Source of the DNA: Symbiobacterium thermophilum IAM 14863
Lineage (GTDB): Bacteria; Bacillota; Sulfobacillia; Symbiobacteriales; Symbiobacteriaceae
DNA length: 64,000 nt
Reading direction: 5' to 3'
Assembly (NCBI RefSeq): GCF_000009905.1
Contig: NC_006177.1
Location: 2,294,001 to 2,358,000 of the forward strand
The position numbers were made by a program, and so were the translations under genes. Shown here piece by piece: positions 163-46,711 of the stretch (position 1 is the stretch's first letter; each line of letters opens with the position of its first letter). The notes beneath the pieces were generated by a model. It saw nothing but the letters and a program-made list of their open reading frames with translations, ran no database searches and was not told where the DNA came from.

Positions 163-242
163 CATGCATTCGCGTCAACACGTTGGGCAAGGGCAGGCGT
201 GAGACCGGGGCCGGGGTGATACCCCGCAGGCACGACGGGAAC

Positions 243-1043
243 GAATGTGCACTTTCTTCGAGTCCTTGCGCAGCGGGCGTTTCCGGGCGCGCGGGACGGG
301 AAAAGCCCAGGAGGCGCGGGCTTCACGAAAGTGCACATTCGCATCAACGGCGGGGTTCATGGCCCCTGCGTGAACGTGTTCGAGGACCGCGCTTCGATCG
401 GGGTCGTGCCGCGGCAACGAATGTGCACGTTCTTCGTGTCCTTGTGCAACAAGCGTTTCCGGGCTCGCGGGACGGGAAGAGCCCATGGGGCGCGGGCTTC
501 ACGAAAGTGCACATTCGCATCAACGGCGGGGTTCAGGACCCCTGGGTGAAGGTGTTCGGGGCCCGAGCTTTGGCCGGGGGCGTGCCGCAGCAACGAATGT
601 GCACTTTCTTCGAGTCCTTGCGCAGCGGGCGTTTCCGGGCGCGCGGGGCGGGAAAAGCCCAGGAGGCGCGGGATTCACGAAAGTGCACATTCGCGTCAAC
701 GGCGGGGTTCATGGCCCCTGCGTGAACGTGTCGAGGACCGCGCTTCGATCGGGGTCGTGCCGCGGCAACGAATGTGCACTTTCGTCGAGTCCTTACGCAG
801 CAAGCGTGTCCGGGCTCGCGGGGCGGGAGAAGCCCATGGGGCGCGGGCTTCACGAAAGTGCACATTCGCATCAACGGCGGGGTTCACGGCCCCCGCGGGA
901 ACGTATTCGAGGACCGAGCTTCGGTCCGGGTCGTGCCGCAGCAACGAATGTGCACTTTCTTCGGATCCTTGCGCAGCAAGCGTGTCCAGGCTCGCGGGAC
1001 GGGAAAAGCCCATGGGGCGCGGGTTTCACGAAAGTGCACATTC
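243..1043. repeat. Array A: five tandem 176-bp units, each with an inverted pair of 14-bp arms
   Basis: The left arm GAATGTGCACTTTC starts at 243, 419, 595, 770 and 946. The right arm GAAAGTGCACATTC starts at 327, 503, 679, 854 and 1030. Both series have a 175-176 bp period. In each unit the arms are exact reverse complements (the second unit's left arm has one change, GAATGTGCACGTTC) and are separated by about 70 bp. The sequence between arms is also conserved from unit to unit. Each arm is itself almost palindromic around GTGCAC. The period is not a multiple of three and all frames stay open only because stops are rare, so this is not coding. Flanks 163-242 and 1044-1215 hold nothing recognisable. 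Confidence 0.95.
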
Positions 1044-1215
1044 GCATCAACGGCAGGGCGGGAAAAGCCGGAATCAGGTATCCGCGCAGCGTGCACGAGG
1101 GAAATGCACGAAACCGGCGCCGAGCCCGCGCGGCCCCGGCCGCCCCTTGCAAACCGGCGTTCCGTGGGGTAGTCCTAGATAGAGAGGATCACAGTCGCGG
1201 CAAGGGGGCAGCCCG

Positions 1216-26200: not shown

Positions 26201-27361
26201 GAGCCGGTCGGGCGTGGAGGTCGAGTCTCGGAGGAGCTGCAGGGCGAGCCGCTCCAGGTCGTTGAAGTCGATGGCGGACTGAGCGGCCTTGGCCTCCCGG
26301 AAGGCCTCGGCGAACTCCCGCACCACACCGCCCAGGGTGCGTAGGTGGGGGGCGATGGCCTGCAGGTCCGCCAGCCACTCGTCGGCGGTGCGGCAGAACC
26401 ACTGCTCCTGCACCGCGCGCACGGCCTTCTTGGCCCGCTCCCGCAGCTTCCCCACCGCCTCCTTCAGCCCTTCGTCCACCTCGCCCTTCTTGGTCCCGGG
26501 CAGCCGGCCGAAGGCCACCGCGGCCACCGCCTCCGCCAGGTCGGCGTAGGATCCGGTCTCGGTCCGCGCGGCAGCCGCCCGGACCGCCGCCTCCTCCGCC
26601 GCCAGCACGTCGAGGTAGGCTGCAGGACCGCCAGGACGGGCGGCCAGCGCCCGGGCGGAGGCCAGGGCTTCAGCCGCGAGCTCCAGCTCCAGCCGGATCT
26701 GCCGCCGGAGCGGCGGCCACCACGGCAGGTCCTCGATGGCCGCGCCTTCCGGCACGTCGAACCGGGCCAGACTCTCCTCCAGCCACTGGTCAGGCCACGG
26801 CAGGGCCTGCATGTGGTCATAGATGGCCAGCACCAAGTTCCGCAGCCCCTCGTCGTCCCGGCCCCCGCCGTAGCGGTCCACCAGGGCGTGGAAGGGCCCG
26901 TCCTCCTCCTCGTCGAACCGGCGGGCGAAGAGCTGGTCCAGCACCTCATGGCGCAGGAGCAGGGCCTCGTGCTCCCCCATCACCGAAACCGCGGGGTCCA
27001 GCCCCAGCCGGTAGAAGTACTGGCGCACGAGGCTGAGGCAGAAGCTGTGCAGGGTGCTGATGGACGCCCGGCCCAGCAGCGCCAGCTGCCGCTGCAGCCG
27101 CTCGTTCTCCGGATTCCCTGCGAGGGCGGCCTGCAGCGCGGCGCCGATCCGGTCCCGCATCTCCGTCGCGGCCGCCTCGGTGAAGGTCACCACCAGCAGT
27201 TGGTCCACGTCCAGCGGGTCCCGCTCGTCCACCAGCCGCCGGATGATCCGCTCCACCAGGACGGCGGTCTTGCCCGACCCGGCCGCGGCCGCCACCAGGA
27301 CGTCCGCACCCCGGGCGGTGATCGCCTGCTCCTGCTCGGGCGTCCAGCGCACGTCAGACAT
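23255..27361 (-). CDS. addA: ATP-dependent helicase/nuclease subunit A (AddA)
   Basis: AddA is the UvrD-type 3'-5' helicase and nuclease subunit of AddAB, which processes double-strand breaks for RecA. The 1,368-residue chain has Walker A AAAGSGKT at about residues 26-33, helicase motif II VDEYQD near residue 405, and the C-terminal RecB-family nuclease motif VDYKTDR near residue 1317. The ATG at 27361 follows GGAGGTGA. It overlaps addB by 8 bp. Two low-complexity insertions with exact internal repeats interrupt the chain: a 13-residue Ala-rich repeat and a 7-residue EEMAPPA repeat. Both look like recent expansions in surface loops. Confidence 0.96.
23876..23945. repeat. 21-bp tandem repeat inside addA (EEMAPPA x3)
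   Basis: The element containing GGCGCCATCTCCTCGGCC recurs at a 21-bp period three times, encoding EEMAPPA repeats just before the C-terminal nuclease domain of AddA. It is in frame and likely a flexible linker. Confidence 0.85.
25074..25190. repeat. 39-bp tandem repeat inside addA (13-residue Ala-rich unit x3)
   Basis: GCCATCGCCGCC begins at 25074, 25113 and 25152, an exact 39-bp period. The encoded unit is close to [13 protein letters not shown], repeated three times. It sits in the region following helicase motifs, where other AddA proteins have a short loop. Confidence 0.9.
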
Positions 27362-30300
27362 CGCCCTCACCTCCTGCAGCCGCCACCCGCTGCCAGACGT
27401 CGGGGGCGTCCATCTTCTCCAGCCGCCGGTATCCTTGGGGCTCCACCGCCGGATCGAACTGGCAGACCGGGCGGTAGGCGCAGTACTGACAGGCCGTGTG
27501 CGGGCCGAGCCGGTACGGGGCGATCGCCGCCTCGCCCTGCAGGATCTGCTCGCCGCAGGCCCGCACCACCCGCCGCAGGTGCGCGAACAGCTGCCGGAAC
27601 TGGTCCGGGCTGGCCACCGGCGCGCCCTTGTACACGGTACCGTCCTTCTTCAGCTTCGCCTGGATGAGCCCCAGTCCGGCGGCGTCCATGGCCTGGATGA
27701 CGGCCGGGTCGTCGCTCACCAGCCCCCGGGCCTGATACCGCTTCCGCCGCAGCGGGCGCACCTCGTCCGGCGGGACAGGGGCGTTCACCGGCTCGACCGG
27801 GTCGTAGACCGGCAGGTAGAGCGCCCCGGCGGGCACCCGCGTCCCGGGCAGCAGCGGCTCGCCCCCCTCCACCACAGCCATCAGGTAGAGCAGGAGCTGC
27901 AGGGTCAGGCCGTGGTAGAAGTCGCCCAGCCGCAGGTCCCGCCGGCCGGACTTGTAGTCGATGACCCGCACGTACCAGCGGCCGTCGCGCCCCTCCAGGG
28001 CATCCACCCGGTCGATGCGGCCCCGCAGCAGCACCCGCCCTCCGCCCGGCAGGTCCACCTCCACCGGCGGCAGGCCGTCCATCTCCTCACCGAAGGGCAC
28101 CTCCACGGCCACCGGCCGGAACTCCCCGTGGAGCACGTGCTCGCTGAGGTAGTCCAACGAGGACTGCAGGGTCCGACGGATGACCCGGAGCAGGTACCGG
28201 TGCTGCGGGCTGGACAGCAGGATCTCGCTCTGCAGCCTCGGCGCCAGCCGGTCGATGATGCTGTCCATCCGCCGCCAGGCCTCGTCAGGGGTCAGCGTGT
28301 CCCACGCAAGCCCGTCCCGTTCCAGTTCCCGCACGAACAGGGAGAGCGCGGCGTGGTAGAAGAGGCCGAACTCGGGTGCGCTGACGGTGAACTCGGCCCG
28401 CCCCTGCAGTCGCAGGGCGTAGCCCGCGAAGTGGCGGAACGGGCAGGACAGGAACGCCTCCAGCCGGCTGACGCTGGTCACCAGCCGGTCGCCGTAGAGC
28501 AGCCGGGCCAGCTCCCGCCCCACCGGCGTGCCCCGGCGGCGCAGCCACTCCTCGTAGCCCACCGCGGCCAGGACCGCCGCGCCCTCCCGGTGCAGGTCGG
28601 GGTCCAGGACGATGCACTGGTAGAGGTCCAGCCAGTGGGGCTCGACAGCGTACCCAGACCGGGCCCGGCGCAGCGCCCGGGCCACCGCAGCCGCCAGCTG
28701 CCGGGGGGTGGCCACCTGCGCCACGGCAGCCTCGGCATCCGGCGCCGGCGGCGCGGCCGGACGGGGCTTCAGTTCGGGGAAGAGCCGGCGCATCCGGCCG
28801 ACCACCGGCGAGGGCGCCGCGGCCCGGCCGGACTCGTCGGCCAGGGGGTAGCTGATCCAGAGGAAGTCGGAGCCGCGGGTGAGCGCCACGTAGGTGAGGA
28901 ACTGCTCCTGGAAGAGCCGCTCCAGGCTGGTGGGGCCCACGTCCAGCCCCGACTGCTTCAGCCGCTCCCGCTCCCGGTCGGTGAAGATCGCGTCTTCGGC
29001 GGGCTGGGGCGGGAAGTCCTTCTCCGTGGCGCCGAGGATCAGGGTGGCCCGCACGCCGGCGTGGCGGCTCCGCTCCACCGTGCCGACGATGACCTGGTCC
29101 AGCCCGGGCGGGATGAGTCCCAGCTTCAGCCCGTCCAGGCCGGCGCTCAGCACCTGCAGGTAGACCTTGGGGCTCAGGACCTGGTCCCCCAGCCCCTCGA
29201 CGATCTGGTCGAACAGCTCCAGCACCCGGGTCCAGACCTGCTCGTGCTCCCGGGCCGTCTCCAGGTCGCCCCGCTGTTCAGCCTCCGCCTTCCACGCCTC
29301 CAGCTGCCGGGCAACCTTCAGGTCGTCCAGGAGCTGGAACAGGTAGGTGGTGATCTCCCGCACCGTGGGCCCCGGCCGTCCCCGGCGCTGGAGGCGCCGC
29401 TGGAAGGCCAGGAGCGGCGCCGTCGCCCGGCGGCGGATGCGGTGAATCTCGTCCAGCAGCGCCTGCTGGGCCGGCCCGGCCGGGACGGCGTCCTCCTCCA
29501 GCGTGTAGCGGCGCAGGTACTGCCAGGGCTCCTGCTGCTGCCAGGCCCGGCCGCGGATGCCGTGCTCGATCACGTAGTTCTCCAGGAGGTCGATCTCGGC
29601 GCGGGAGACGCCGGTCAGGTCGGTCTTCAGGTACCGGAAGACGGGGCCGTAGGCCCAGTCCTGCACCACCACCTCCAGCGCCGCTCGCAGGAGCTCCACC
29701 AGCGGGTGGTGCGCCACGGTGCGCCGCCGGTCGATGAACGCCGGGATGCCGTGCTCGGCGAAGAGGGTGGCCGCAAGGTCGCCGTAGCCCTCCAGATCCC
29801 GGGCGACGACGGCGATCTCCCGGAAGCGCAGCCCCTCCTCCCGCACCAGCCGCAGGATCTCCCGGGCCGCCGCGGCCACCTCCTCCCGCCGGTTCTGCGC
29901 CTCCACCAGGGCGATGCGCTCGGGGGCGCCGGGCCAGGCCGGGGCGGACTGGCGGAACAGGTACCGCTCGACATGGGCCAGTTCGGGGGCGCCGCGGAAC
30001 CGGAGCGGCTCGTTCAGGTACAGGGGCGGGTCCACGGCGACGCCGCTCTCTGCCGCCAGCTGCATCAGCTGGTCGTAGGTCGAAAGCACCGGGTGGAAGA
30101 GGTCCGACGGCGAGTGGTGGCCCCCGGCCTTGTAGAGCTGGCCGGGCGGGATGCAGAGGCTGATGTGCACCTGGCGCGCCGACCGCATGACGGCCCCGAG
30201 CACCGCCAGCTCCTGCGGCGTGAAGCCGTTGAAGCCATCCACCCAGACCTCGGCCCCCTCCAGCAGCCGGCTCTCCTCCAGCCGGGCCGCGAGGACGGTC

Positions 30301-30857
30301 AGGTACTCGTCGGGATCCGTGAACCTTCCTTCGATATAACTACGCAGCTCGTCCATCACCAGGGCCAGGTCGTGCAGCTTGGCCCCCAGGCTGGTCTCGC
30401 CCAGCCCTTCGGCCTCCAGCTGCGACAGCTGCCGCCGCAGGCTCTCCGGTCCCTGCCGGTAACTGCGCAGCTCCCGGATGGAGCCCGCCACCCGCTCGAT
30501 GAAGCCGGGCTTGTCCGCCACCTGATGGAAGAGGCGGAGGTCATCCCGCTTCTTCTCCAGCAGCGCGCGCAGCACCATCTGCTTGCCCAGGTCGCTGAGC
30601 GGCGGCAGCGCAAGGCCGCCGGCCTTCAGGGAGACTCGCCAGGCCAGCCGCTGAAACGACAGCACCTGCGCCCGGATGATGCCCTTCAGCCGCCCGCTCC
30701 CCAGCAGCGCCTGCTCCACCTGGAAGGTGGCCTGTTCGGGCACCAGCAGGATGAGCGGCGGGCCGGCGGGTGCCGCCTGCGCGGCCTGGGTCAGCTCGTC
30801 CAGGCAGCGCTGGCTCTTGCCCGAGCCGGCGCCGCCGATGATGAAGCGCACGCCCAT
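27354..30857 (-). CDS. addB: ATP-dependent nuclease subunit B (AddB)
   Basis: AddB pairs with AddA, scans for Chi and supplies the second nuclease. The 1,167-residue protein has an N-terminal Walker A GGAGSGKS (about residues 7-14) and a C-terminal RecB-type nuclease domain with [11 protein letters not shown] and VIDYKSG. The cysteines expected for the [4Fe-4S] cluster are present: [13 protein letters not shown], and later [10 protein letters not shown]. The ATG at 30857 is used because AAGGAGGTC lies 9 nt upstream; an open frame continues 45 bp further. The gene follows sbcC on the same strand, separated by hairpin array B, and overlaps addA by 8 bp. Confidence 0.96.
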
Positions 30858-30948
30858 GTGTCGGACCTCCTTCATATGCGCGGCCTTGCGCCTCACGGGC
30901 ACAGGGCGGTGGTGCGCGATTGCTGAAGCTGGGCTTCGTGCCGGGCTT

Positions 30949-31559
30949 CAGGTTTTGCGCGAGAGGGGTTGTCTCGCGAGCGGGACACGCGCAGAATCTG
31001 GGGTCTGGCCTCAACAGCCGGTTCAGGTTCTGCGCGCAATCCGTGCCCCACGAGCCCTTCGACGCGCAGAATCTGAAGTTCGACTCGGGCCGGGGGTCCA
31101 GGTTTTGCGCGAGTGGGGGCATCCCACGGCCAGACACGCGCAGAATCTGGGGTCTGGCCTCAGGAGCCCGTGCAGATTTTGCGCGCCACCCGTGCCCCAC
31201 CAGCCCCTCGACGCGCAGAATCTGAAGTTCGACTCGGGCCGTGGGTCCAGGTTTTGCGCGAGTGGGGGCATCCCACGGCCGAACACGCGCAGAATCTGGG
31301 GTCTGGCCTCAGGAGCCCGTGCAGATTTTGCGCGCCACCCGTGCCCCACGAGCCCCGCGACGCGCAGAATCTGAAGTTCGACTCGGGCCGGGGGTCCAGG
31401 TTTTGCGCGAGTGGGGTCCCCCCGCGGGCGGGACACGCGCAGAATCTGGGGTCAGGCCTCAACCGCCGGTTAAGGTTTTGCGCGCCACCCGTGCCCCACG
31501 AGCCCCGCGACGCGCAGAATCTGAAGTTCGACCCGAGCCGTGGGTGCAGGTTCTGCGCG
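30949..31559. repeat. Array B: eight and a half 74.5-bp units with inverted 13-bp arms
   Basis: Left arms (CAGGTTTTGCGCG, CAGATTTTGCGCG or CAGGTTCTGCGCG) start at 30949, 31024, 31099, 31173, 31248, 31322, 31397, 31472 and 31547. Spacing is always 74 or 75 bp. Right arms (CGCGCAGAATCTG, invariant) start at 30988, 31063, 31137, 31212, 31286, 31361, 31436 and 31511. The last left arm has no partner. Arms differ from perfect complementarity only by transitions at positions 4 and 7. Loops of about 25 nt and spacers of about 23 nt alternate between two types, giving a 149-bp super-repeat. The array fills the space between the sbcC stop and the addB start. It is not coding: the 149-bp period changes frame at each repeat. 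Confidence 0.96.
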
Positions 31560-31641: not shown

Positions 31642-34600
31642 TCACGCCCGTTCCAGCCGCAGCCGGCTGCCGCGCCCGCCTGGCTCAGCCGGCTCCACGA
31701 TGACCCGGCGGTGGAGCCGGTTCCTGAGCTCGGCCACGTGGCTGATCACCCCGACGTTCAGCCGGTCGAAGTGCAGCCGCTCCAGCGTGGAGATCACCAC
31801 GTCCAGCAGCTCCGGGTCCAGGGTGCCGAAGCCCTCGTCCAGGAAGAAGAACTCCAGGGGATAGTGCCCGTGCAGCTGGATCTGCGCCGAGAGCGCCAGG
31901 GCCAGCGACAGAGAGGCCAGGAACGTCTCGCCGCCGGAGAGCGTGTTCACCGAGCGCAGGGTCCCGCCGTTGGTCTCGTCCCGCACCAGGAAGCTGCCGT
32001 CCGGCGCCGCCTCCAGCGTGTACCGGTCCCGGGTGAGCTGGCGCAGCCGCCGGGAGGCGTCGGCCGCCACCCGCGCCATCTGCTCCTGGGCGATGAAATT
32101 GACGAAGGCGTTGCCCCGCAGGACCTTCTGCAGCTCATCCAGGTGGTCGAGCCGTGCAGCCAGCCCCAGCCGCTGCTCCTCCAGCTCCTGCCAGCGCCGC
32201 TGCTTGGCCAGCAGGTCGTCGCGGACCTGCATCGCCCGGGCCCGCTCCTCCCGCCGCTCGGCGGCGCTCCGGCGGGCCTGCTCCAGCCTGTCCACCCACG
32301 CCCGCCACTCCTCGGCGCTGATGCTCCGGCCGGCCAGCTGCTGCTCCAGGGCCGCCTGCCGACCCTTCAGCCGCTCGCCCTCCTGGTCGTGGCGCCGGAT
32401 CTCCTCGTCCAGCGCAGCCTGCCGCGCCGCGAGCCGCAGCGCCCCACGCGCCGCCTCCGCGCTCTCAAAGCCGGCAACCGTCAGGGCTTCCGCCAGTGCG
32501 GCTTCCGCCTCTGCCACGTGCCGGTGCGCCACCTCCAGCTCCCGCACGGCGGCGGCGCGGGCAGCCTCAGCCTGTCCATGCGCACGCTCGGCCCGCTCCT
32601 TCGCCGCGGCGGCCTGCTCCTCCTCCTGGGCCAGCCTGGTGAGTCGGGACTCCACCGCGGTCAGCTGCGGCCTCGCCGGCTCGCCGCCGGAGAGGCGGCG
32701 CCACTGGTCTGCGACCTCCTCGTACCGCTGCACCGCCTGCGCGTGGCGCACCCGGGCCTCCTGCAGTTCGTCGGCGCAGCGTTTCTCCTCGGTTCGCAGG
32801 GCACCCAGCCGGCTCTCCAGCTCCTGCTGGCCGGTGCGGACCTCCGCCAGCGATCGGCGCAGGTCCGCCACCCGCTCGTCCGCGTCCCGGATGCGCCGCA
32901 GCGCAGCCTCCACGCCTGCGGCGTCCAGGTCGTCCCGGACCGCATCAAACTGTGCAGCGCACTCCGCCGCAGCGGACCGCCGCGCGTCGGCCTCGGCCCG
33001 GGCGTCGGCCAGGGCCTGCTCGGCATGTGCGACCGCGGCCTGCCGCTCCCGGGCGTCTCCCGCCGCCGCGAACAGCGCCCGCGTGCGCTCCTCGCGCGCC
33101 TGCTGCAAGGCGGCGACCTGCTCGCGCCACCCCGCAAACCGGCGGGCCCGTTCCTCGTGTTCCGCCGCCTCCCGGGCCAGCGCTTCCTCGAGCTGCGGCC
33201 CGGCCAGCGACCGCCACGCCGCAGGAAGCCGCTCCCGGGCGGCCTCCAGGGCCAACCGGGCCTCCTCCAGCGCCCGTTCGGCCTCAGCCTGCCGCCGACG
33301 GGCGGATTCCGCCTGCTCCCGGGCTGCGGCCGTGCGCTCCTGCGCCCTGCCCAGCGCCGATCCGGCCGCGCGCAGCCGCGCCTCGGCCTGCTCCAGCCGG
33401 GCCTCCTCCGCCTCCAGGTTGACGGCCTCCCCCACCACGGCAGGCTGAGGGTGTTCCCGCGATCCGCAGACGGGGCAGGGCTCTCCCGGCGTCAGGGCCT
33501 GCGCCAGGGCGGCCGCGTGGGCCCGCCTGCGGGCCGCGGCAACGGCCGCCCGCACGGCCTCCCGTTCCTGTTCTGCGGCTTCCACAGCCTGCTGCTGCTG
33601 CGCCTCTTCCAGGAGGGCCTGTTCGATGCGGGCCGCAGCCTCCTCCCACTCCCGGCGGCGGGCATCCGCCTCGGCCTGCCGCTGGGCGTACTGCGCCGCC
33701 AGCCCCGCTACGGTGCGAATCTGCTCGCCCGCCCGTCCGAGCCACGCCTCCTGTGCGCGCAGGTCGGCCTCGTCCGCTGGCGGCTCGGTCTCCAGCCGCT
33801 GCAGGGCGGACTCCACCTCCTGCAACCGCCGCTCCGCCTCCAGGCGGAGCGCTTCCGCCTGCTCTGCCGCCCTCCGGGCGTGCTCCAGCTCTTGCTCACG
33901 CTGCCGGACCCGCTGCTCCGCCTGCAGCAGGGCGCGCTCGGCTTCCCTCAGCCGGTCCAACGCCCGCTGGGCATCGGTGATCCGGTTGCGCTCCTCGGGG
34001 GAGACCTCCAGCCGGGCGATCTCCTCCTGGAGCCCGGTCTCCCGGGCGCGCAGCGCAGCCGCCCGCTTCTCGGCCTCCCCGATCTGCCGCACGACGGCAT
34101 CGTGCTTCTCCCGCAGCGCAGCCACCTGCTCCTCCACCTCGCCGGCCTGCCGCCGGGCCTCCTCGAGCCGGTCCTCCAGCTCGACGGCCCGCTGCAGATC
34201 CGCCTGCCGCCGGGTCAGGGCGGGAGCCTGCTCCATGCGGTTCGTGCGGGCCTCGGCGTACGCCTGCGCGGCGCGGGCGACCTCCGCCTCTGCGTCCCGC
34301 ACCGCCTGCTCCGCGAGCGCAACCGCCCGCTCGGCCCGCGCCGCGGCGGCTGCCGCCTGATCCCGCGCCGTCAGATGGGGCCGCACCGCATCCGCCCGCC
34401 GGGCCGCGTCCAGCTCGGCCCGGGCGGCGTCCACGGCCTGCGCCTGCGCTTCCCAGCGGGCCAGCTCATCGGTTATCCCTGCCAGCTCCTGCTGCAGCTG
34501 CCACACCCGCTCCCATTCCTTGAACCGGGACTCGGTGTCAGCCAGCTGCCGCTCGGCCTCGGCCAGGGCCGCCGTGACCTGCCGGAGGGCCTCCTCCGCC

Positions 34601-35244
34601 GCGGACACCGCCTCGGCCGAGGCATCGCCCAGGCCCCGCTGCTCGCCCGCCACCGCGTCCAGCTGCCGCTCGACGGCCTCCTTCCGCCGCTTCAGCCGCT
34701 CGTTCAGCACGTCGCCGTACTGGGAGAGCGCGAAGATGCGCTGGAGCATCTCCGTCCGCTTGCTCCCGGTCAGCTTCAGGAACTCGGCGAACTGCCCCTG
34801 GGGCAGGACCACGGCGCGGGTGAAATCGTCAATCTCCAGCCCCAACAGGTCCGTGACCTGCTGGGTCACTTCCCGTTCCCGGTCGGCCAGCACCTCGTCC
34901 CCTTCGGGCAGCACCCGGACCAGCCGGGCGTGCTCGCTGCGGATGGACGGGGTATCCTTCTCCCGGCGGTAGCTCCGCTCCACCCGGTACTCGGTCCCGC
35001 CGAGGGCAAACGTGAACTTCACCCACAGCCGGTTTTCGTTGAGGTTCATGATCCCCATGGTGCCCCGGGTCCGCTCCACGCGGCCGTACAGGGCCAGGGT
35101 GATGGCGTCCAGGATGGTGGACTTGCCCGCCCCCGTGGGCCCGAAGATGCCGAAGAGGCCGGCGCCCATCAGCTCGCGGAAGTCGATCTCCTGGGGCTCC
35201 CGGTAGCTCTGCAGCCCCGCAAACGCCAGCCGGATGGGCCTCAT
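31642..35244 (-). CDS. sbcC: Exonuclease subunit SbcC (Rad50-like)
   Basis: With SbcD this SMC-like ATPase opens DNA hairpins and blocked ends. The 1,200-residue chain has Walker A GPTGAGKST at about residues 35-43, long coiled-coil arms rich in Ala, Arg, Glu and Gln, a zinc hook CPVC near residue 590, the signature LSGGETFLASLSLALAL and Walker B FFLDEGFGTLD at the C-terminus. Its start overlaps sbcD by 4 bp. The next gene on the strand is addB, after array B. All parts expected of an active enzyme are present. Confidence 0.97.
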   Translation of the reverse strand: MRPIRLAFAGLQSYREPQEIDFRELMGAGLFGIFGPTGAGKSTILDAITLALYGRVERTRGTMGIMNLNENRLWVKFTFALGGTEYRVERSYRREKDTPSIRSEHARLVRVLPEGDEVLADREREVTQQVTDLLGLEIDDFTRAVVLPQGQFAEFLKLTGSKRTEMLQRIFALSQYGDVLNERLKRRKEAVERQLDAVAGEQRGLGDASAEAVSAAEEALRQVTAALAEAERQLADTESRFKEWERVWQLQQELAGITDELARWEAQAQAVDAARAELDAARRADAVRPHLTARDQAAAAAARAERAVALAEQAVRDAEAEVARAAQAYAEARTNRMEQAPALTRRQADLQRAVELEDRLEEARRQAGEVEEQVAALREKHDAVVRQIGEAEKRAAALRARETGLQEEIARLEVSPEERNRITDAQRALDRLREAERALLQAEQRVRQREQELEHARRAAEQAEALRLEAERRLQEVESALQRLETEPPADEADLRAQEAWLGRAGEQIRTVAGLAAQYAQRQAEADARRREWEEAAARIEQALLEEAQQQQAVEAAEQEREAVRAAVAAARRRAHAAALAQALTPGEPCPVCGSREHPQPAVVGEAVNLEAEEARLEQAEARLRAAGSALGRAQERTAAAREQAESARRRQAEAERALEEARLALEAARERLPAAWRSLAGPQLEEALAREAAEHEERARRFAGWREQVAALQQAREERTRALFAAAGDARERQAAVAHAEQALADARAEADARRSAAAECAAQFDAVRDDLDAAGVEAALRRIRDADERVADLRRSLAEVRTGQQELESRLGALRTEEKRCADELQEARVRHAQAVQRYEEVADQWRRLSGGEPARPQLTAVESRLTRLAQEEEQAAAAKERAERAHGQAEAARAAAVRELEVAHRHVAEAEAALAEALTVAGFESAEAARGALRLAARQAALDEEIRRHDQEGERLKGRQAALEQQLAGRSISAEEWRAWVDRLEQARRSAAERREERARAMQVRDDLLAKQRRWQELEEQRLGLAARLDHLDELQKVLRGNAFVNFIAQEQMARVAADASRRLRQLTRDRYTLEAAPDGSFLVRDETNGGTLRSVNTLSGGETFLASLSLALALSAQIQLHGHYPLEFFFLDEGFGTLDPELLDVVISTLERLHFDRLNVGVISHVAELRNRLHRRVIVEPAEPGGRGSRLRLERA

Positions 35245-41002: not shown

Positions 41003-41014
41003 GGGGTGATGCCC

Positions 41015-44000
41015 ATGCCGGCTTTTCGGCGCGTGCTTGTCGCCAACCGGGGCGAGATCGCCATCCGCATCTTCCGCGCGTGCACGGAACTGGGCAAACA
41101 GACCGTGGCCGTGTACTCCGAACAGGACAGCCTCTCGCTCCACCGGTACAAGGCCGACGAAGCCTACCTCATCGGCGAGGGCAAGGGCCCCGTGGAGGCT
41201 TACCTCGACGTGGAGGGGATCATCCGGCTGGCCCGGGAGCACGAGGTGGACGCCATCCACCCCGGCTACGGCTTCCTGGCAGAGAACGCCGCGTTCGCCC
41301 GCCGCTGCCGGGAAGAGGGGATCGCCTTCATCGGCCCGGACCCCGAGCACCTGGAGATGTTCGGCGACAAGGTGGCGGCACGCCGGATCGCCCGGGAGGC
41401 GGGGCTGCCCCTCCCCCGCGGCACCGAGGCGCCGGTCGCCTCGGTGAAGGAGGCCCTCGCCTTCGCCCGGGAGGTGGGCTACCCGATCATCGTCAAGGCC
41501 GTGCTGGGCGGCGGCGGCCGGGGCATGCGGGTGGTCCGCTCCGACGCCGAGCTGAAGGACGCGCTGGAGCGGGCCCGCTCCGAGGCCCAGGCGGCCTTCG
41601 GCTCGGGCGAAGTCTACCTGGAAGAGTACGTGGAGCGGCCCCGCCACATCGAGGTCCAGGTGATGGCCGACCGATACGGAAACGTGGTCCACCTGTACGA
41701 GCGGGACTGCTCCATCCAGCGCCGGCACCAGAAGGTGGTGGAAATTGCCCCCTCGCTGGCCCTGACCGAACCCCAGCGGCAGGAGATCTGCGGTGCGGCC
41801 GTCCGGCTGATGGCCCGGGTGGGCTACGTGGGCGCCGGCACCGTCGAGTTCCTGGTCGCGCCCGACGGCCGCTACTACTTCATGGAGGTCAACCCGCGCA
41901 TCCAGGTGGAGCACACGGTGACCGAGGAGATCACCGGGCTGGACATCGTCCAGGCCCAGATCCGCATCGCCGAGGGAGCGCGCCTGGACGAGGCGCTGGG
42001 GGTCGCCTCCCAGGCGCAGATCGCCCGGCACGGTTACGCCATCCAGTGCCGGGTGACCGCCGAGGACCCGGCCAACGACTTCCTGCCCGACACCGGCCGC
42101 ATCCTGGTCTACCGCTCCCCCGGCGGACCCGGCGTCCGGCTGGACGGCGACAACGGGTTCGTCGGCGCGGAGATCACGCCGTACTACGACTCGCTGCTGG
42201 TGAAGGCCACCACCTGGGGACTCACCTTCGAGGCGGCGGCCGCCAAGATGAGCCGGGTGCTCCAGGAGTTCCGCATCCGCGGGGTGAAGACCAACATCCC
42301 GTTCCTCCTGAACGTCATCCGCCACCCCCGGTTCCTCGCCGGCGACGTGGACACCAACTTCATCCACGACTCGCCCGAGCTGTTCCAGTTTCCGCCCCGC
42401 CGGGACCGGGGCACCAAGGTGCTCCGCTACATCGGCCACGTGGTGGTCAACGGCGGCCCGGGGGTGCCTCCCGGGGCCAAGCCGCCCGCCCGGTCCCAGC
42501 CGCCCATCCCGAAGGCGGAGGGGCCGGTTCCCCCCGGCGTCCGGCAGGTCCTGCTGGAGCGGGGCGCCGAGGGGCTGGTGGAGTGGATCCGGACCCAGAA
42601 GCGACTGCTGGTGACCGACACTACGATGCGGGACGGCCACCAGTCGCTGCTGGCCACCCGGGTGCGTACCCGGGACATGCTGACCATCGCCCCGGCCACG
42701 GCGCGCCTCGCCTCGGGGCTCTTCTCCCTGGAGATGTGGGGCGGCGCGACGTTCGACACGGCCCTGCGGTTCCTGAAGGAGGACCCCTGGGAGCGGCTGG
42801 ACCTGCTCCGCCGGGCCATCCCCAACATCCCCTTCCAGATGCTGCTGCGCGGCGCCAACGCCGTCGGCTACGCCAACTACCCCGACAACCTGGTCCACGC
42901 CTTCGTCCGGGAGGCCGCGGCGGCGGGCATCGACATCTTCCGCATCTTCGACGCGCTCAACTGGCTGCCCAACATGCGGCCCGCGATCGAGGCGGTGCGC
43001 AGCGCCGGCAAGGTGGCCGAGGTGGCCATCTGCTACACGGGGGACATCACGGACCCCGCCCGCACCAAGTACAACCTGCGGTACTACGTGGACCTGGCGA
43101 AGGAGCTGGAGAAGGCCGGCGCGCAGATCCTCGCGATCAAGGACATGTCGGGCCTCCTGAAGCCCCGGGCGGCCAAGATGCTGATCTCCGCTCTGAAGCA
43201 GGAGGTCGGCGTGCCGCTGCACCTGCACACCCACGACACCGCCGGCACGGGGCTGGCGACGCTGCTGGCCGCGGCCGAGGCCGGGGTGGACATCGTCGAC
43301 GCCGCCCTCTCCTCCCTCTCCGGGCTGACGTCCCAGCCGTCGCTCAACACGCTGGTGGCGGCGCTGCAGGGCAGCGACCGGGATACGGGGCTGGACCTGG
43401 CGGCGCTGCAGCAGCTGGCCGACTACTGGCAGGAGGTCCGCCGCTGGTACGCCCCCTGGGAGTCCGGGCTCCTGGCCACTTCCGCTGAGACGTACCTGCA
43501 CGAGATGCCCGGCGGGCAGGTCTCGAACCTGCGCCAGCAGGCCGTCGCCCTGGGGCTCGGCGGTCGCTGGCATGAGGTGGTCGAGGCCTACCGCACGGCC
43601 AACCTGGCCCTGGGGGACATCGTCAAGGTCACCCCGTCCTCCAAGGCCGTCGGCGACCTGGCGCTGTTCATGGTGCAGAACGGCATCCGCACGACCGAGG
43701 AGCTGGTCCGGCGGGGCGAGGGCCTGGCCTTCCCCGAGTCGGTGGTGCAGATGCTGGCCGGCTATATGGGGCAGCCCCCCGGCGGGTGGCCGGAGGAGCT
43801 GCAGCGGGTGGTGCTGAAGGGCCGGGAGGCGATTACGGTCCGCCCGGGGGAGCTGCTGCCGCCCATCGACTTCGAGGCGAAGCAGAGGGAGCTCTCGGCG
43901 AAGCTCGGGCGGCCCGCGGCCCAGCGGGAGGTCTTGTCGGAGGTGCTCTTCCCCGGCCTGCTGGAGCAGCTGGCCCGGCACCAGGAGGAGTACGGGAACA

Positions 44001-44452
44001 CGGCGGTGGTCGACACGCCCACCTTCTTCTACGGCCTGCGCCCCGGCGAGGAGACCCGGGTGGAGATCGAGAAGGGCAAGACGCTGATCATCAAGCTGGT
44101 GGACGTGCGGGATCCCAAGCCCAACGGCATGCGGGAAGTCCTGTTCGAGCTGAACGGTTCCCAGCGGGAGGTCGAGGTGCCCGACCAGCGGCTGGTGGAC
44201 GCCGGCGCCCGCCGGCCCAAGGCGGACAAGGGCGATCCGTGCCATCTGGGCGCCTCCATGCCGGGCAAGGTCCTGAAAGTCCTGGTCGCCCCCGGCGACC
44301 AGGTCGCCAAGGGCGTGCAGCTGGTGGTGACCGAGGCGATGAAGATGGAGAACGTGCTCACCGCGCCCCGGGACTGCCGGATCAAGGACGTGCTGGTGAA
44401 GGAGGGCGACCGGGTCGAGGCCGGGGACCTGGTGGTGGTGCTCGAAGAGTGA
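41015..44452 (+). CDS. pyc: Pyruvate carboxylase
   Basis: The enzyme carboxylates pyruvate to oxaloacetate, replenishing the TCA cycle and feeding gluconeogenesis. The 1,145-residue chain has all three parts: the biotin carboxylase domain (FRRVLVANRGEIAIRI start, glycine-rich KAVLGGGGRGMRVV, MEVNPRIQVEHTVTEE), the carboxyltransferase domain (TDTTMRDGHQSLLATRVR, metal-binding HLHTHDTAG) and the C-terminal biotinyl domain with the modified lysine in TEAMKMENV. The ATG at 41015 is best placed after AAGGGGTGAT; in-frame GTG 41006 and ATG 41009 lie within that site. Confidence 0.98.
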   Translation: MPAFRRVLVANRGEIAIRIFRACTELGKQTVAVYSEQDSLSLHRYKADEAYLIGEGKGPVEAYLDVEGIIRLAREHEVDAIHPGYGFLAENAAFARRCREEGIAFIGPDPEHLEMFGDKVAARRIAREAGLPLPRGTEAPVASVKEALAFAREVGYPIIVKAVLGGGGRGMRVVRSDAELKDALERARSEAQAAFGSGEVYLEEYVERPRHIEVQVMADRYGNVVHLYERDCSIQRRHQKVVEIAPSLALTEPQRQEICGAAVRLMARVGYVGAGTVEFLVAPDGRYYFMEVNPRIQVEHTVTEEITGLDIVQAQIRIAEGARLDEALGVASQAQIARHGYAIQCRVTAEDPANDFLPDTGRILVYRSPGGPGVRLDGDNGFVGAEITPYYDSLLVKATTWGLTFEAAAAKMSRVLQEFRIRGVKTNIPFLLNVIRHPRFLAGDVDTNFIHDSPELFQFPPRRDRGTKVLRYIGHVVVNGGPGVPPGAKPPARSQPPIPKAEGPVPPGVRQVLLERGAEGLVEWIRTQKRLLVTDTTMRDGHQSLLATRVRTRDMLTIAPATARLASGLFSLEMWGGATFDTALRFLKEDPWERLDLLRRAIPNIPFQMLLRGANAVGYANYPDNLVHAFVREAAAAGIDIFRIFDALNWLPNMRPAIEAVRSAGKVAEVAICYTGDITDPARTKYNLRYYVDLAKELEKAGAQILAIKDMSGLLKPRAAKMLISALKQEVGVPLHLHTHDTAGTGLATLLAAAEAGVDIVDAALSSLSGLTSQPSLNTLVAALQGSDRDTGLDLAALQQLADYWQEVRRWYAPWESGLLATSAETYLHEMPGGQVSNLRQQAVALGLGGRWHEVVEAYRTANLALGDIVKVTPSSKAVGDLALFMVQNGIRTTEELVRRGEGLAFPESVVQMLAGYMGQPPGGWPEELQRVVLKGREAITVRPGELLPPIDFEAKQRELSAKLGRPAAQREVLSEVLFPGLLEQLARHQEEYGNTAVVDTPTFFYGLRPGEETRVEIEKGKTLIIKLVDVRDPKPNGMREVLFELNGSQREVEVPDQRLVDAGARRPKADKGDPCHLGASMPGKVLKVLVAPGDQVAKGVQLVVTEAMKMENVLTAPRDCRIKDVLVKEGDRVEAGDLVVVLEE

Positions 44453-44601: not shown

Positions 44602-45654
44602 CCGGTTCTCCTGTGCGGGCGGCAGCGCCCGGCGCAGCCGCGCAGAAGTTCAAGTGTCGGATCAGGCGGTGTCTCAGGTTCTGCGCGTGGGCGAGGTCCA
44701 GGAACTCTCTCGCGCGCAAAACCTGAAGTGGCACTCGGGACTGAACCGCAGGTTCTGCGCGCCAACGACGCCCCCAGCCGCTTCAGCCGCGCAGAACCTG
44801 AAGTGATGGCCCGAGCCGAACTGCAGATTTTACGCGTGGGCAACGTACCGCATCCCGCTTGCGCGCAAAACGTGAACCGGTGGTCCAGGCCCAACTGCAG
44901 ATTCTGCGCGTCAGCCAGGTTCCAGAGGCCCCATGCGCGCAGAACCTGAAGTGGCTCTCGGGATCGAACCGTAGGTTGTTCGCGTGCACGACGCCCCCAC
45001 CCGCTTCACCCGCGCAGAACCTGTAGTGATAGCCCGAGCCGAACTCCAGATTCTGCGCGTGGACGAGGCTCCGGAGCCCTCTTGCGCGCAAAACCTGAAG
45101 TGATAGCCCGAACCGAACTGCAGATTCTGCGCGTGGGCGAGGTTCCGGAGCTTTCTTGCGCGCAGAACCTGAAGTGGTGCTCGGGAACGAACCGCAGGTT
45201 TTGCGCGCGGCCGGCCTCTTCAGCAGCCTCACCCGCGCAGAACCTGAGGTGATAGCCCGAGCCGAACCGCAGATTTTGCGCGTGGACGAGGTTCCGGAGC
45301 CCTCCTGCGCGCAGAACCAGAAGTGGCACTCGCGAACGAACCTCAGGTTTTGCGCGCAGCCGGCCTCTCCACCCGCTTCACCCGCGCAGAACCTGTAGTG
45401 ATAGCCCGAGCCGAACTCCAGATTCTGCGCGTGGACGAGGCTCCGGAGCCCGCTTGCGCGCAGAACCTGAAGTGGCACTCGCGAACGAACCGCAGGTTTT
45501 GCGCGCAGCCGTCCTCTCCAGCCGCCTCACCCGCGCAGAACCTGTAGTGATAGCCCGAGCGGAACTCCAGATTCTGCGCGTGGACGAGGTTCCGGAGCCC
45601 GCTTGCGCGCAGAACCTGAAGTGGCGCTCGGGAACGAACCGCAGGTTTTGCGCG
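44602..45654. repeat. Array C: thirteen complete 74.5-bp hairpin units, same family as array B
   Basis: Left arms (CAGGTTCTGCGCG and variants such as CAGATTCTGCGCG, CAGGTTTTGCGCG) start at 44675, 44749, 44824, 44898, 44972, 45047, 45121, 45195, 45270, 45344, 45419, 45493, 45568 and 45642. Every interval is 74 or 75 bp. Right arms (CGCGCAGAACCTG or close variants) follow each of the first thirteen at 38-39 bp; the last is unpaired. A decayed unit is visible one period earlier (about 44602-44651). CAGGTT and CAGATT units mostly alternate, with two loop and two spacer types. Arms and period match array B; spacers share AAGT-n-ACTCG-type sequence. It lies between pyc and the MerR gene. The interval 44,453-44,601 holds no gene. 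Confidence 0.96.
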
Positions 45655-45713
45655 CTGACGGCCCCTCCGGCCGGTGCACGCACGTCAGGTTCAAATAAGG
45701 CGAGACCAGAAGA

Positions 45714-45741
45714 CCGGCGATCACCCCTGCGTGATCGCCGG
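45714..45741. terminator. Hairpin downstream of the MerR-family gene
   Basis: CCGGCGATCAC (45714-45724) pairs with GTGATCGCCGG (45731-45741) over 6 nt, and AGAAG/CTTCT just outside extends the stem. It is about 150 bp beyond the MerR stop on the minus strand and just past array C, so it could separate the two. The rest of 45,655-45,888 holds no gene. Confidence 0.6.
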
Positions 45742-45888
45742 CTTCTCCATTCACTGCCACCAGGCAGCGAACCGCCCGAACCCGGCAGCCGTGCCTCCAG
45801 GAGCCGCCTGCGCGACGCCCGGATCGGTCGTGCAGCCGGGGTCACCTCCATGCTGGCCCCCACCCCCTCGCCCGGGCCGCCTTCCCAT

Positions 45889-46617
45889 TTACACGCGCGA
45901 AGCCGCCTGCTTGATGTAGCGGTACAAGTCGACGTCCATGCCGTAGAGCAGCCCGGCGTCAGGGTTGTCCCGATAATACTGCTCGGCGGCCTGCGTCAGC
46001 GGTTCACCGGCGGGCAGGAGCGCGCCGGTGACCTCCTTCCAGCGCCGCGCCAGGGCGGTGACAGCGGGGGCGTCAGGAGCGATCCCCGCGTCGAAGTACC
46101 GGCGGAACTCGGCCACCAGCCGCCGGCCGGTCTCGAACAGCTCCCGCCGGACCGCGGGATCCAATCCCAGGTACTTCTGACGCACCTGTTCGACCTCATC
46201 CCGGCGGAAATGCGGGCTCCCGGTCAGCGTCAGCGCATGGGCCACGGCCATCAGCTCCTCGATGGCCACCGACCCGCCGACCTCCAGGTGATCGTGCAGG
46301 CGCTGCACGTGCGCGCGCACCTCCGTCAGCGCCGCGATCTGCTCGTCCAGCCGGGCCAGCTGGACCTGCAGCATCGCCCGGGGATCCTCGGCGGCATCGC
46401 TGAGCAGCACCTTGATCTCGCGCAGCGAGAACCCCAGCCGCTTCAGCGAGATGATGGAAAGCAGCCTGCGCACGTCGGCGTCCGAGTAGACCCGGTGTCC
46501 CGCCTCGGTACTGGAGGAAGGCGACAGCAGGCCGATGTGATCGTAGTGGTGGAGAGTCCGCACCGTGATGCCGACCCGCCGGGCCAGCTCACCGATCTTC
46601 CAGCCACGCCGGTTCAA
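45889..46617 (-). CDS. MerR-family regulator with TipAS-like effector domain
   Basis: The 242-residue protein has an N-terminal MerR winged helix (WKIGELARRVGITVRTLHHYDHIGLL, given here in part as IGELARRVGI and LHHYDHIGLL), a dimerising coiled coil, and a C-terminal domain with YLGLDPAVRREL and ALARRWKEVTGALL. That domain resembles the TipAS ligand-binding fold, which binds thiopeptides or other hydrophobic drugs. The TTG at 46617 follows AAAGGGGGCAGGG; the frame is open further. It is divergent from hslO, and the intergenic region contains a perfect MerR-type operator/promoter. Confidence 0.88.
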   Translation of the reverse strand: MNRRGWKIGELARRVGITVRTLHHYDHIGLLSPSSSTEAGHRVYSDADVRRLLSIISLKRLGFSLREIKVLLSDAAEDPRAMLQVQLARLDEQIAALTEVRAHVQRLHDHLEVGGSVAIEELMAVAHALTLTGSPHFRRDEVEQVRQKYLGLDPAVRRELFETGRRLVAEFRRYFDAGIAPDAPAVTALARRWKEVTGALLPAGEPLTQAAEQYYRDNPDAGLLYGMDVDLYRYIKQAASRV

Positions 46618-46680
46618 GAACCCTGCCCCCTTTCGGTCTGCCCCGGCCTCCCTTCCGGTGCGCGCCCGTGCGGACGGGGC

Positions 46681-46711
46681 TTGAACCTGACGCAACGTCA
46701 GGTTCTATACT
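46681..46711 (+). promoter_or_regulatory. MerR-type hslO promoter with 19-bp spacer and palindromic operator
   Basis: -35 TTGAAC (46681-46686) and -10 TATACT (46706-46711) are separated by 19 bp, the over-long spacing characteristic of promoters activated by DNA distortion from MerR proteins. A perfect 10-bp inverted repeat, GAACCTGACG-caa-CGTCAGGTTC (46683-46705), fills the spacer. The start codon of hslO is 43 bp downstream. The MerR-family gene starts 64 bp to the left, so it is very likely the regulator. Confidence 0.85.

What the first reader, a model, noticed from the sequence alone, without database searches (positions are those of the whole stretch)
44602..45654. Array C: a second, longer array of the same family after pyc
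Thirteen complete hairpins plus a decayed first unit and an unpaired last arm continue the same 74.5-bp period and the same arm core as array B, 13 kb away, with diverged loops. Both arrays end on an unpaired left arm. This suggests the array is copied or extended as a unit by a defined process, and that the arm sequence and the spacing are both under constraint while loops drift.
Basis: seen in the sequence. Interest (0 to 1): 0.75.

Follow-up and report, generated by a model that had tools for sequence, protein, structure and literature searches.

The report
Helix-phased inverted-site arrays between genes
Array C is one of about 19 loci in this bacterium's chromosome that carry paired, mirror-image 13-letter DNA sites, mostly as tandem arrays spaced by exactly 6, 7 or 8 turns of the double helix, which suggests an unidentified protein binds side by side along one face of the DNA; such arrays appear and disappear between sister species.

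Summary
The array is real. Window 44639-45654 holds 14 inverted pairs (dyads) CGCGCARAAYCTG-N23-CAGRTTYTGCGCG at a 74/75-bp period. The host is probably Symbiobacterium thermophilum. Its genome has 11 loci with this arm (F1) and about 8 with a second arm (F2, GCRRAATGTGC) and the same internal spacing; 397 other genomes of the phylum have none. Sister species G002 has a variant arm with the same spacing. Start-to-start spacings of 64, 74.6 and 85.3 bp equal 6.00, 7.00 and 8.00 turns at 10.66 bp/turn; unrelated tandem repeats of the genus are not phased. Fixed arm positions are 96% identical between arrays, loops 41%; loops are homogenised within arrays. The arms do not covary, which argues against an RNA or hairpin role. 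Array B is missing from G002 and C from G001. Best reading: cooperative binding arrays for an unknown protein, spread as satellites. Binder and function are not shown.

The parts
44639..45654 (.). Array C: 14 inverted dyads CGCGCARAAYCTG-N23-CAGRTTYTGCGCG, starts 44639 (left arm decayed), 44713, 44788, 44862, 44936, 45011, 45085, 45159, 45234, 45308, 45383, 45457, 45532, 45606
45606..45654 (.). last dyad of C, both arms intact (no unpaired terminal arm)
44639..44687 (.). first, decayed dyad of C (left arm CGCGCAGAAGTTC, right arm intact)
30988..31559 (.). Array B: 8 complete dyads of the same family in the sbcC-addB junction; loops alternate in a 149-bp two-unit period
30913..30961 (.). decayed dyad at the edge of B (only the right arm at 30949 intact)
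41006..44452 (+). pyruvate carboxylase (pyc), whose 3' end faces array C
45889..46695 (-). MerR/TipAS-type regulator, convergent with pyc; its 3' end faces array C
45709..45745 (.). terminator-like hairpin GAAGACCGGCGATCAC...GTGATCGCCGGCTTC between array C and merR; a hairpin lies at the same place in sister species G001, which has no array
   Evidence: seen in sequence
31642..35244 (-). SbcC-like SMC/Rad50 ATPase, upstream of array B
27354..30902 (-). AddB, downstream of array B

Best explanation
Array C is a cluster of double-stranded DNA binding sites. Each unit is a dyad of two inverted 13-bp half-sites whose offset (36 bp) is fixed to the base, as expected if one protein dimer or dimer of dimers binds both. 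Successive dyads are an integer number of helical turns apart (6, 7 or 8), so bound complexes sit on the same face and can touch, forming a cooperative nucleoprotein stack of about 5-14 units at gene ends. The likely consequence is local architecture: a barrier to supercoils or read-through, or an anchor, at the gene boundary (inference). New arrays are seeded in gene-end spacers by copying one or a few units from another array. They then grow and homogenise in place by unequal exchange, mostly in 1- or 2-unit steps, and are lost again; selection on binding keeps the arms and the phasing while loops and linkers drift. Shown: dyad, fixed offset, phasing, arm constraint, homogenisation, presence/absence between species. 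Inferred: the binder, cooperativity, the architectural role and the copying route.
For: Arm offset 36 bp in 100 of 101 F1 dyads in 11 loci. All 24 exact F2 matches in about 8 G000 and 3 G002 loci have one total length although gaps of 13-43 were allowed; the sister-species matches show the same with gaps of 16-46 allowed. Spacings of 64, 74.6 and 85.3 bp are 6.00, 7.00 and 8.00 turns at 10.66 bp/turn; with the rarer 126, 138, 139, 171 and 182 bp, p is about 2e-4 after optimising the helical repeat. Control tandem repeats of the same genus give mean cosine -0.21 against 0.99. Between arrays: arm fixed positions 0.96, R/Y positions 0.48, loops 0.41; 22 of 26 arm columns agree in essentially all 11 array consensuses. 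No covariation between arms. Flanking genes are unrelated and 3' ends face nearly all arrays. Sister species have empty sites.
Against: No binding protein was identified, and no gene is consistently next to the arrays. The three tight spacing classes are few, and arrays of one class may share descent, so the phasing statistic rests on eight distinct spacing values that I selected. One decayed unit pair in the 1.938-Mb array (143 bp, from about 68 + 75) is out of phase and was left out, and the 126-bp pair of G002 is 0.18 turn off. The fixed offset could partly reflect common descent of F1 and F2. No binding or expression data.
Confidence: 0.5

Rival explanations
1. A REP/BIME-like non-autonomous mobile element: palindromic units in alternating orientation, processed as single-stranded hairpins by a tyrosine (HUH) transposase and amplified by rolling replication.
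For: Alternating orientation, regular spacing, intergenic, species-specific, clusters of up to 14 units; BIMEs are described as regularly spaced REPs in alternating orientation (PMC2817692).
Against: No Y1/RAYT transposase (PF01797) in the genome, while the control search rings in E. coli. No GTAG tag on the units and the single arm is not itself a REP-type hairpin. No covariation between the arms, whereas REP palindromes are reported to be kept by complementary changes (PMC2817692).
Confidence: 0.13
2. Neutral dispersed satellite: a repeat unit copied to new places and amplified by slippage and unequal exchange, with no bound protein and no function; arms look conserved because copying is recent or because hairpin-prone arms drive copying.
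For: In-place homogenisation, gain and loss between species, unrelated tandem repeats also abundant in the genus, one of them in the same sbcC-addB junction of G001.
Against: Does not predict arms at 96% against loops at 41% between arrays, one invariant offset in two arm families, or integer helical spacing.
Confidence: 0.22
3. An RNA element: arrays are transcribed and the dyads act as chains of RNA hairpins (terminators, mRNA stabilisers, structured ncRNA).
For: The dyads are inverted repeats; array B sits between genes that are 35 bp apart in a sister species and so may be transcribed.
Against: No Rfam match in the arrays (the only hits are group II introns beside some arrays). Arm positions 7/43 and 10/40 are unpaired in 28 and 25 of 66 units; covariation no better than shuffles. 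Strand preference of G-U-compatible changes is mixed in array C. Helical phasing is not expected for RNA.
Confidence: 0.08
4. A guide-RNA type array (CRISPR or TIGR-like).
For: Regular palindromic units of about 75 bp in arrays of 7-14.
Against: Loops and linkers are near-identical within an array, so there are no unique spacers; no cas-type gene was seen in the flanks examined.
Confidence: 0.02

Closest known systems
BIMEs (bacterial interspersed mosaic elements) made of REP units, as in E. coli BIME-2
   Same: Regularly spaced palindromic motifs in alternating orientation, intergenic, in arrays, species-specific; BIMEs bind proteins (gyrase, IHF, Pol I) (PMC2817692)
   Different: Here each inverted arm is a plain 13-bp site, not a REP hairpin; no GTAG tag, no RAYT; spacing quantised in helical turns; arms do not covary
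Dispersed non-coding satellite families of prokaryotes (e.g. Leptospira interrogans; PMC6749651)
   Same: Non-coding tandem repeats over 30 nt with related repeats at several places in one genome; that survey found only a few such cases
   Different: About 19 loci in two arm families here; dyad architecture with invariant offset and helical phasing is not described for those families in the parts of the survey I read
Arrays of operator or centromere sites (ParB-parS, plasmid sopC), from own knowledge
   Same: Tandem or clustered inverted binding sites on which a protein assembles cooperatively
   Different: Many dispersed arrays with a novel site; no partition genes alongside; binder unknown

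Membership tests
REP/BIME (GTAG-tagged REPs with RAYT) | Regularly spaced units in alternating orientation, intergenic | tested here: met
REP/BIME (GTAG-tagged REPs with RAYT) | Cognate RAYT (Y1 tyrosine transposase) in the genome | tested here: not met
   no PF01797 match in the genome; control positive in E. coli
REP/BIME (GTAG-tagged REPs with RAYT) | Palindrome kept by complementary changes | tested here: not met
REP/BIME (GTAG-tagged REPs with RAYT) | GTAG or CGTC tag at one end of the unit | tested here: not met
   no conserved tag at the ends of the 66 aligned units or in the listed linkers
Dispersed non-coding satellite family | Tandem non-coding repeat over 30 nt with similar repeats at several loci of one genome | tested here: met
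Dispersed non-coding satellite family | Homogenisation within arrays | tested here: met
CRISPR array | Unique spacers between conserved repeats, cas genes nearby | tested here: not met
   linkers and loops repeat within arrays; no cas-type gene in the flanks examined
Structured RNA family in Rfam | Match to a covariance model | tested here: not met
Cooperative protein-binding array | Helically phased, conserved sites | tested here: met
Cooperative protein-binding array | A protein that binds the sites | not testable with these tools
   needs pull-down, ChIP or footprint

The most novel reading that the evidence does not exclude
Symbiobacterium chromosomes carry a bacterial satellite system: dispersed arrays of inverted sites, phased to whole helical turns, on which a fast-evolving host protein assembles filaments at gene ends, with arm sequences changing between sister species together with that protein.
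Probability: 0.3. Interest if true: 0.85.

Novelty: new variant of a known kind. Interest (0 to 1): 0.62.

Why it matters
Long non-coding satellite families dispersed through a bacterial genome are rarely reported. This one combines three measurable constraints: invariant arm offset, integer helical spacing and arm conservation. That makes a direct test possible (find the binder, shift the phase by half a turn), and turnover between sister species gives a natural experiment on how such arrays are born and spread.

Tried and rejected
RNA hairpin role: covariation and G-U strand consistency tested, not supported. REP/RAYT: no Y1 transposase. Wide occurrence: the exact pattern in genome contigs and viral contigs gave only isolated palindromes or different dense repeats of other bacteria, no arrays of this layout; 0 of 60 relatives and 0 of 397 phylum genomes. 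A sigma-54-like GG-N10-GC in some arms was considered and dropped because the GG is not conserved between arrays. A link to group II introns was considered (2 of 25 full introns lie within about 330 bp of an array, and a third array adjoins an intron-type RT gene); both prefer gene-end spacers, so I do not claim it. The genome paper of S. thermophilum could not be opened in the library.

Full report
What is there. Window 44639-45654 holds 14 copies of an inverted dyad, CGCGCARAAYCTG-N23-CAGRTTYTGCGCG, at steps of 74 or 75 bp. The arm core is found 47 times in the window at one mismatch or less, against 1.3 expected from dinucleotide shuffles. The true register is the other one: '>' to '<' is 36 bp in 100 of 101 dyads genome-wide, while '<' to '>' is about 28, 38/39 or 49/50 bp depending on the array. 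In the true register C ends on a complete dyad, and the "unpaired last arm" vanishes.

Genome and distribution. The window lies at 2294001-2358000 of a 3,566,135-bp single-contig genome. From memory this is the size of Symbiobacterium thermophilum IAM 14863; gene content (AddAB, SbcCD, group II introns, high G+C) agrees, but the name is an inference. The exact F1 core occurs 68 times, all in 11 loci: 676.6 kb (11 dyads), 828.3 kb (7), 1.938 Mb (7), 2.029 Mb (9), B 2.325 Mb (8), C 2.339 Mb (14), 2.512 Mb (2, not at unit spacing), 2.541 Mb (9), 2.849 Mb (7, period 64), 2.927 Mb (13) and 2.961 Mb (14) (dyad counts include decayed units). A 400-kb sample revealed a second arm family, F2: GCRRAATGTGC...GCACATTYYGC, in most arrays with an AGTTCGAG extension on one side. 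A pattern search then gave about eight F2 loci (1.206, 2.105, 2.369, 2.553, 2.572, 2.741, 3.365 and 3.441 Mb), some with only one or two dyads. A pattern covering both families has 94 matches here and none in 397 other genomes of the phylum.

Geometry. All 24 exact F2 matches (20 here, 4 in sister species G002) have the same dyad length although the gap was free over 31 values, and it corresponds to the F1 offset. Between dyads the linker (counted between the F1 13-mers or their F2 equivalents) is 15, 25-26 or 36-37 bp. Start-to-start spacings of 64, 74.6 and 85.3 bp are 6.00, 7.00 and 8.00 turns at 10.66 bp/turn. Adding the wider spacings (126, 138, 139, 171, 182) gives 11.82, 12.95, 13.04, 16.04 and 17.07 turns, p about 2e-4 after choosing the best helical repeat between 10.3 and 10.8. 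Ten unrelated tandem repeats of the genus give mean cosine -0.21. Caveats: few distinct spacings, possible shared descent, and a decayed 143-bp step at 1.938 Mb that is out of phase and was not included.

Constraint. Between arrays the fixed arm positions are 96% identical, the R and Y positions 48%, the loops 41% (29% for shuffled letters). In C itself loops have drifted to 63% while fixed arm positions stay at 96%. The two arms do not covary: pairs 7/43 and 10/40 fail in 28 and 25 of 66 units, and paired cells are no more frequent than in shuffles. Each arm is therefore constrained as a site in its own right, not as half of a stem.

Evolution. The nearest loop is in the same array for 96 of 100 units. 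All 14 C units form one clade (0.99), and label changes on the tree are 9 against a minimum of 7 and a shuffled mean of 58. Several arrays alternate two unit types (lag-2 identity 0.88 against lag-1 0.39 in B), so growth often went by two-unit steps. In sister G001 the pyc-merR spacer is short, has a terminator-like hairpin and no array. In sister G002 the sbcC-addB spacer is 35 bp with no array, while G001 has an unrelated tandem repeat in that same junction. Array B has therefore been gained (or lost) within the genus, inside what looks like an operon. G002 has dyads with the variant arm GCARAATGTGC; G001 has other tandem arrays, several with a TCAACAG...GAACAGAACG motif.

Surroundings. Flanking genes are unrelated (threonine exporter, LigD polymerase domain, transporters, aconitase-like, LuxR-type regulator and so on). 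Nearly all arrays sit some 10-480 bp beyond a stop codon; for the 2.927-Mb array the neighbouring gene ends are less clear. No tyrosine (Y1) transposase is present and Rfam finds nothing in the arrays.

Conclusion. The anatomy fits cooperative protein-binding arrays that spread and homogenise as satellites. Dyad, offset, phasing, arm constraint and turnover are shown; binder, function and copying route are inferred. It works like a BIME or an operator array but fails the tested REP/BIME criteria; it meets the criteria of a dispersed non-coding satellite family, of which only few are described in prokaryotes (PMC6749651).

Noticed in passing
window 236-1058: Array A: about 5 copies of a 98-bp inverted element (GAATGTGCACTTTC-N70-GAAAGTGCACATTC), period about 176; further exact copies at genome 2647111 and 2705089 and one in sister species G002. 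Its arm resembles F2, but its period is not helically phased (16.5 turns).
   Followed up: partly
L081:11686-12082 (genome 2011686) and L055:1016-1360 (G002): Further inverted-repeat array types (AAGTGAAAGTTCG in G000, GCGGCCGATTTCGACTTCGC in G002), period 114-115.
   Followed up: no
G001 loci L092, L097:15512-16070, L103:17284-18270, L106:9044-9843: Sister species G001 has several tandem arrays; those in L092, L097 and L103 share a bipartite motif TCAACAG-N8-AGAACAGAACG, not found as an F1/F2 dyad.
   Followed up: partly
genome 829092-829261 (+), 1937416-1937585 (-), L023:491-1771 (-): 25 group II introns matching RF02001, almost all oriented with replication (switch near 1.81-1.9 Mb); two lie within about 330 bp of an F1 array and a third array adjoins a group II intron RT gene and a truncated transposase-like reading frame.
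   Followed up: partly
L119 (G001), downstream of sbcC: The sbcC-addB junction carries an unrelated tandem repeat in G001, so this junction gained repeats independently in two species.
   Followed up: partly
L035, L041, L042: Solirubrobacteraceae MAG and viral contigs with dense short repeats CCCCGCAGAATCTGCRCCCC, resembling the F1/F2 arm core but without the dyad layout.
   Followed up: no
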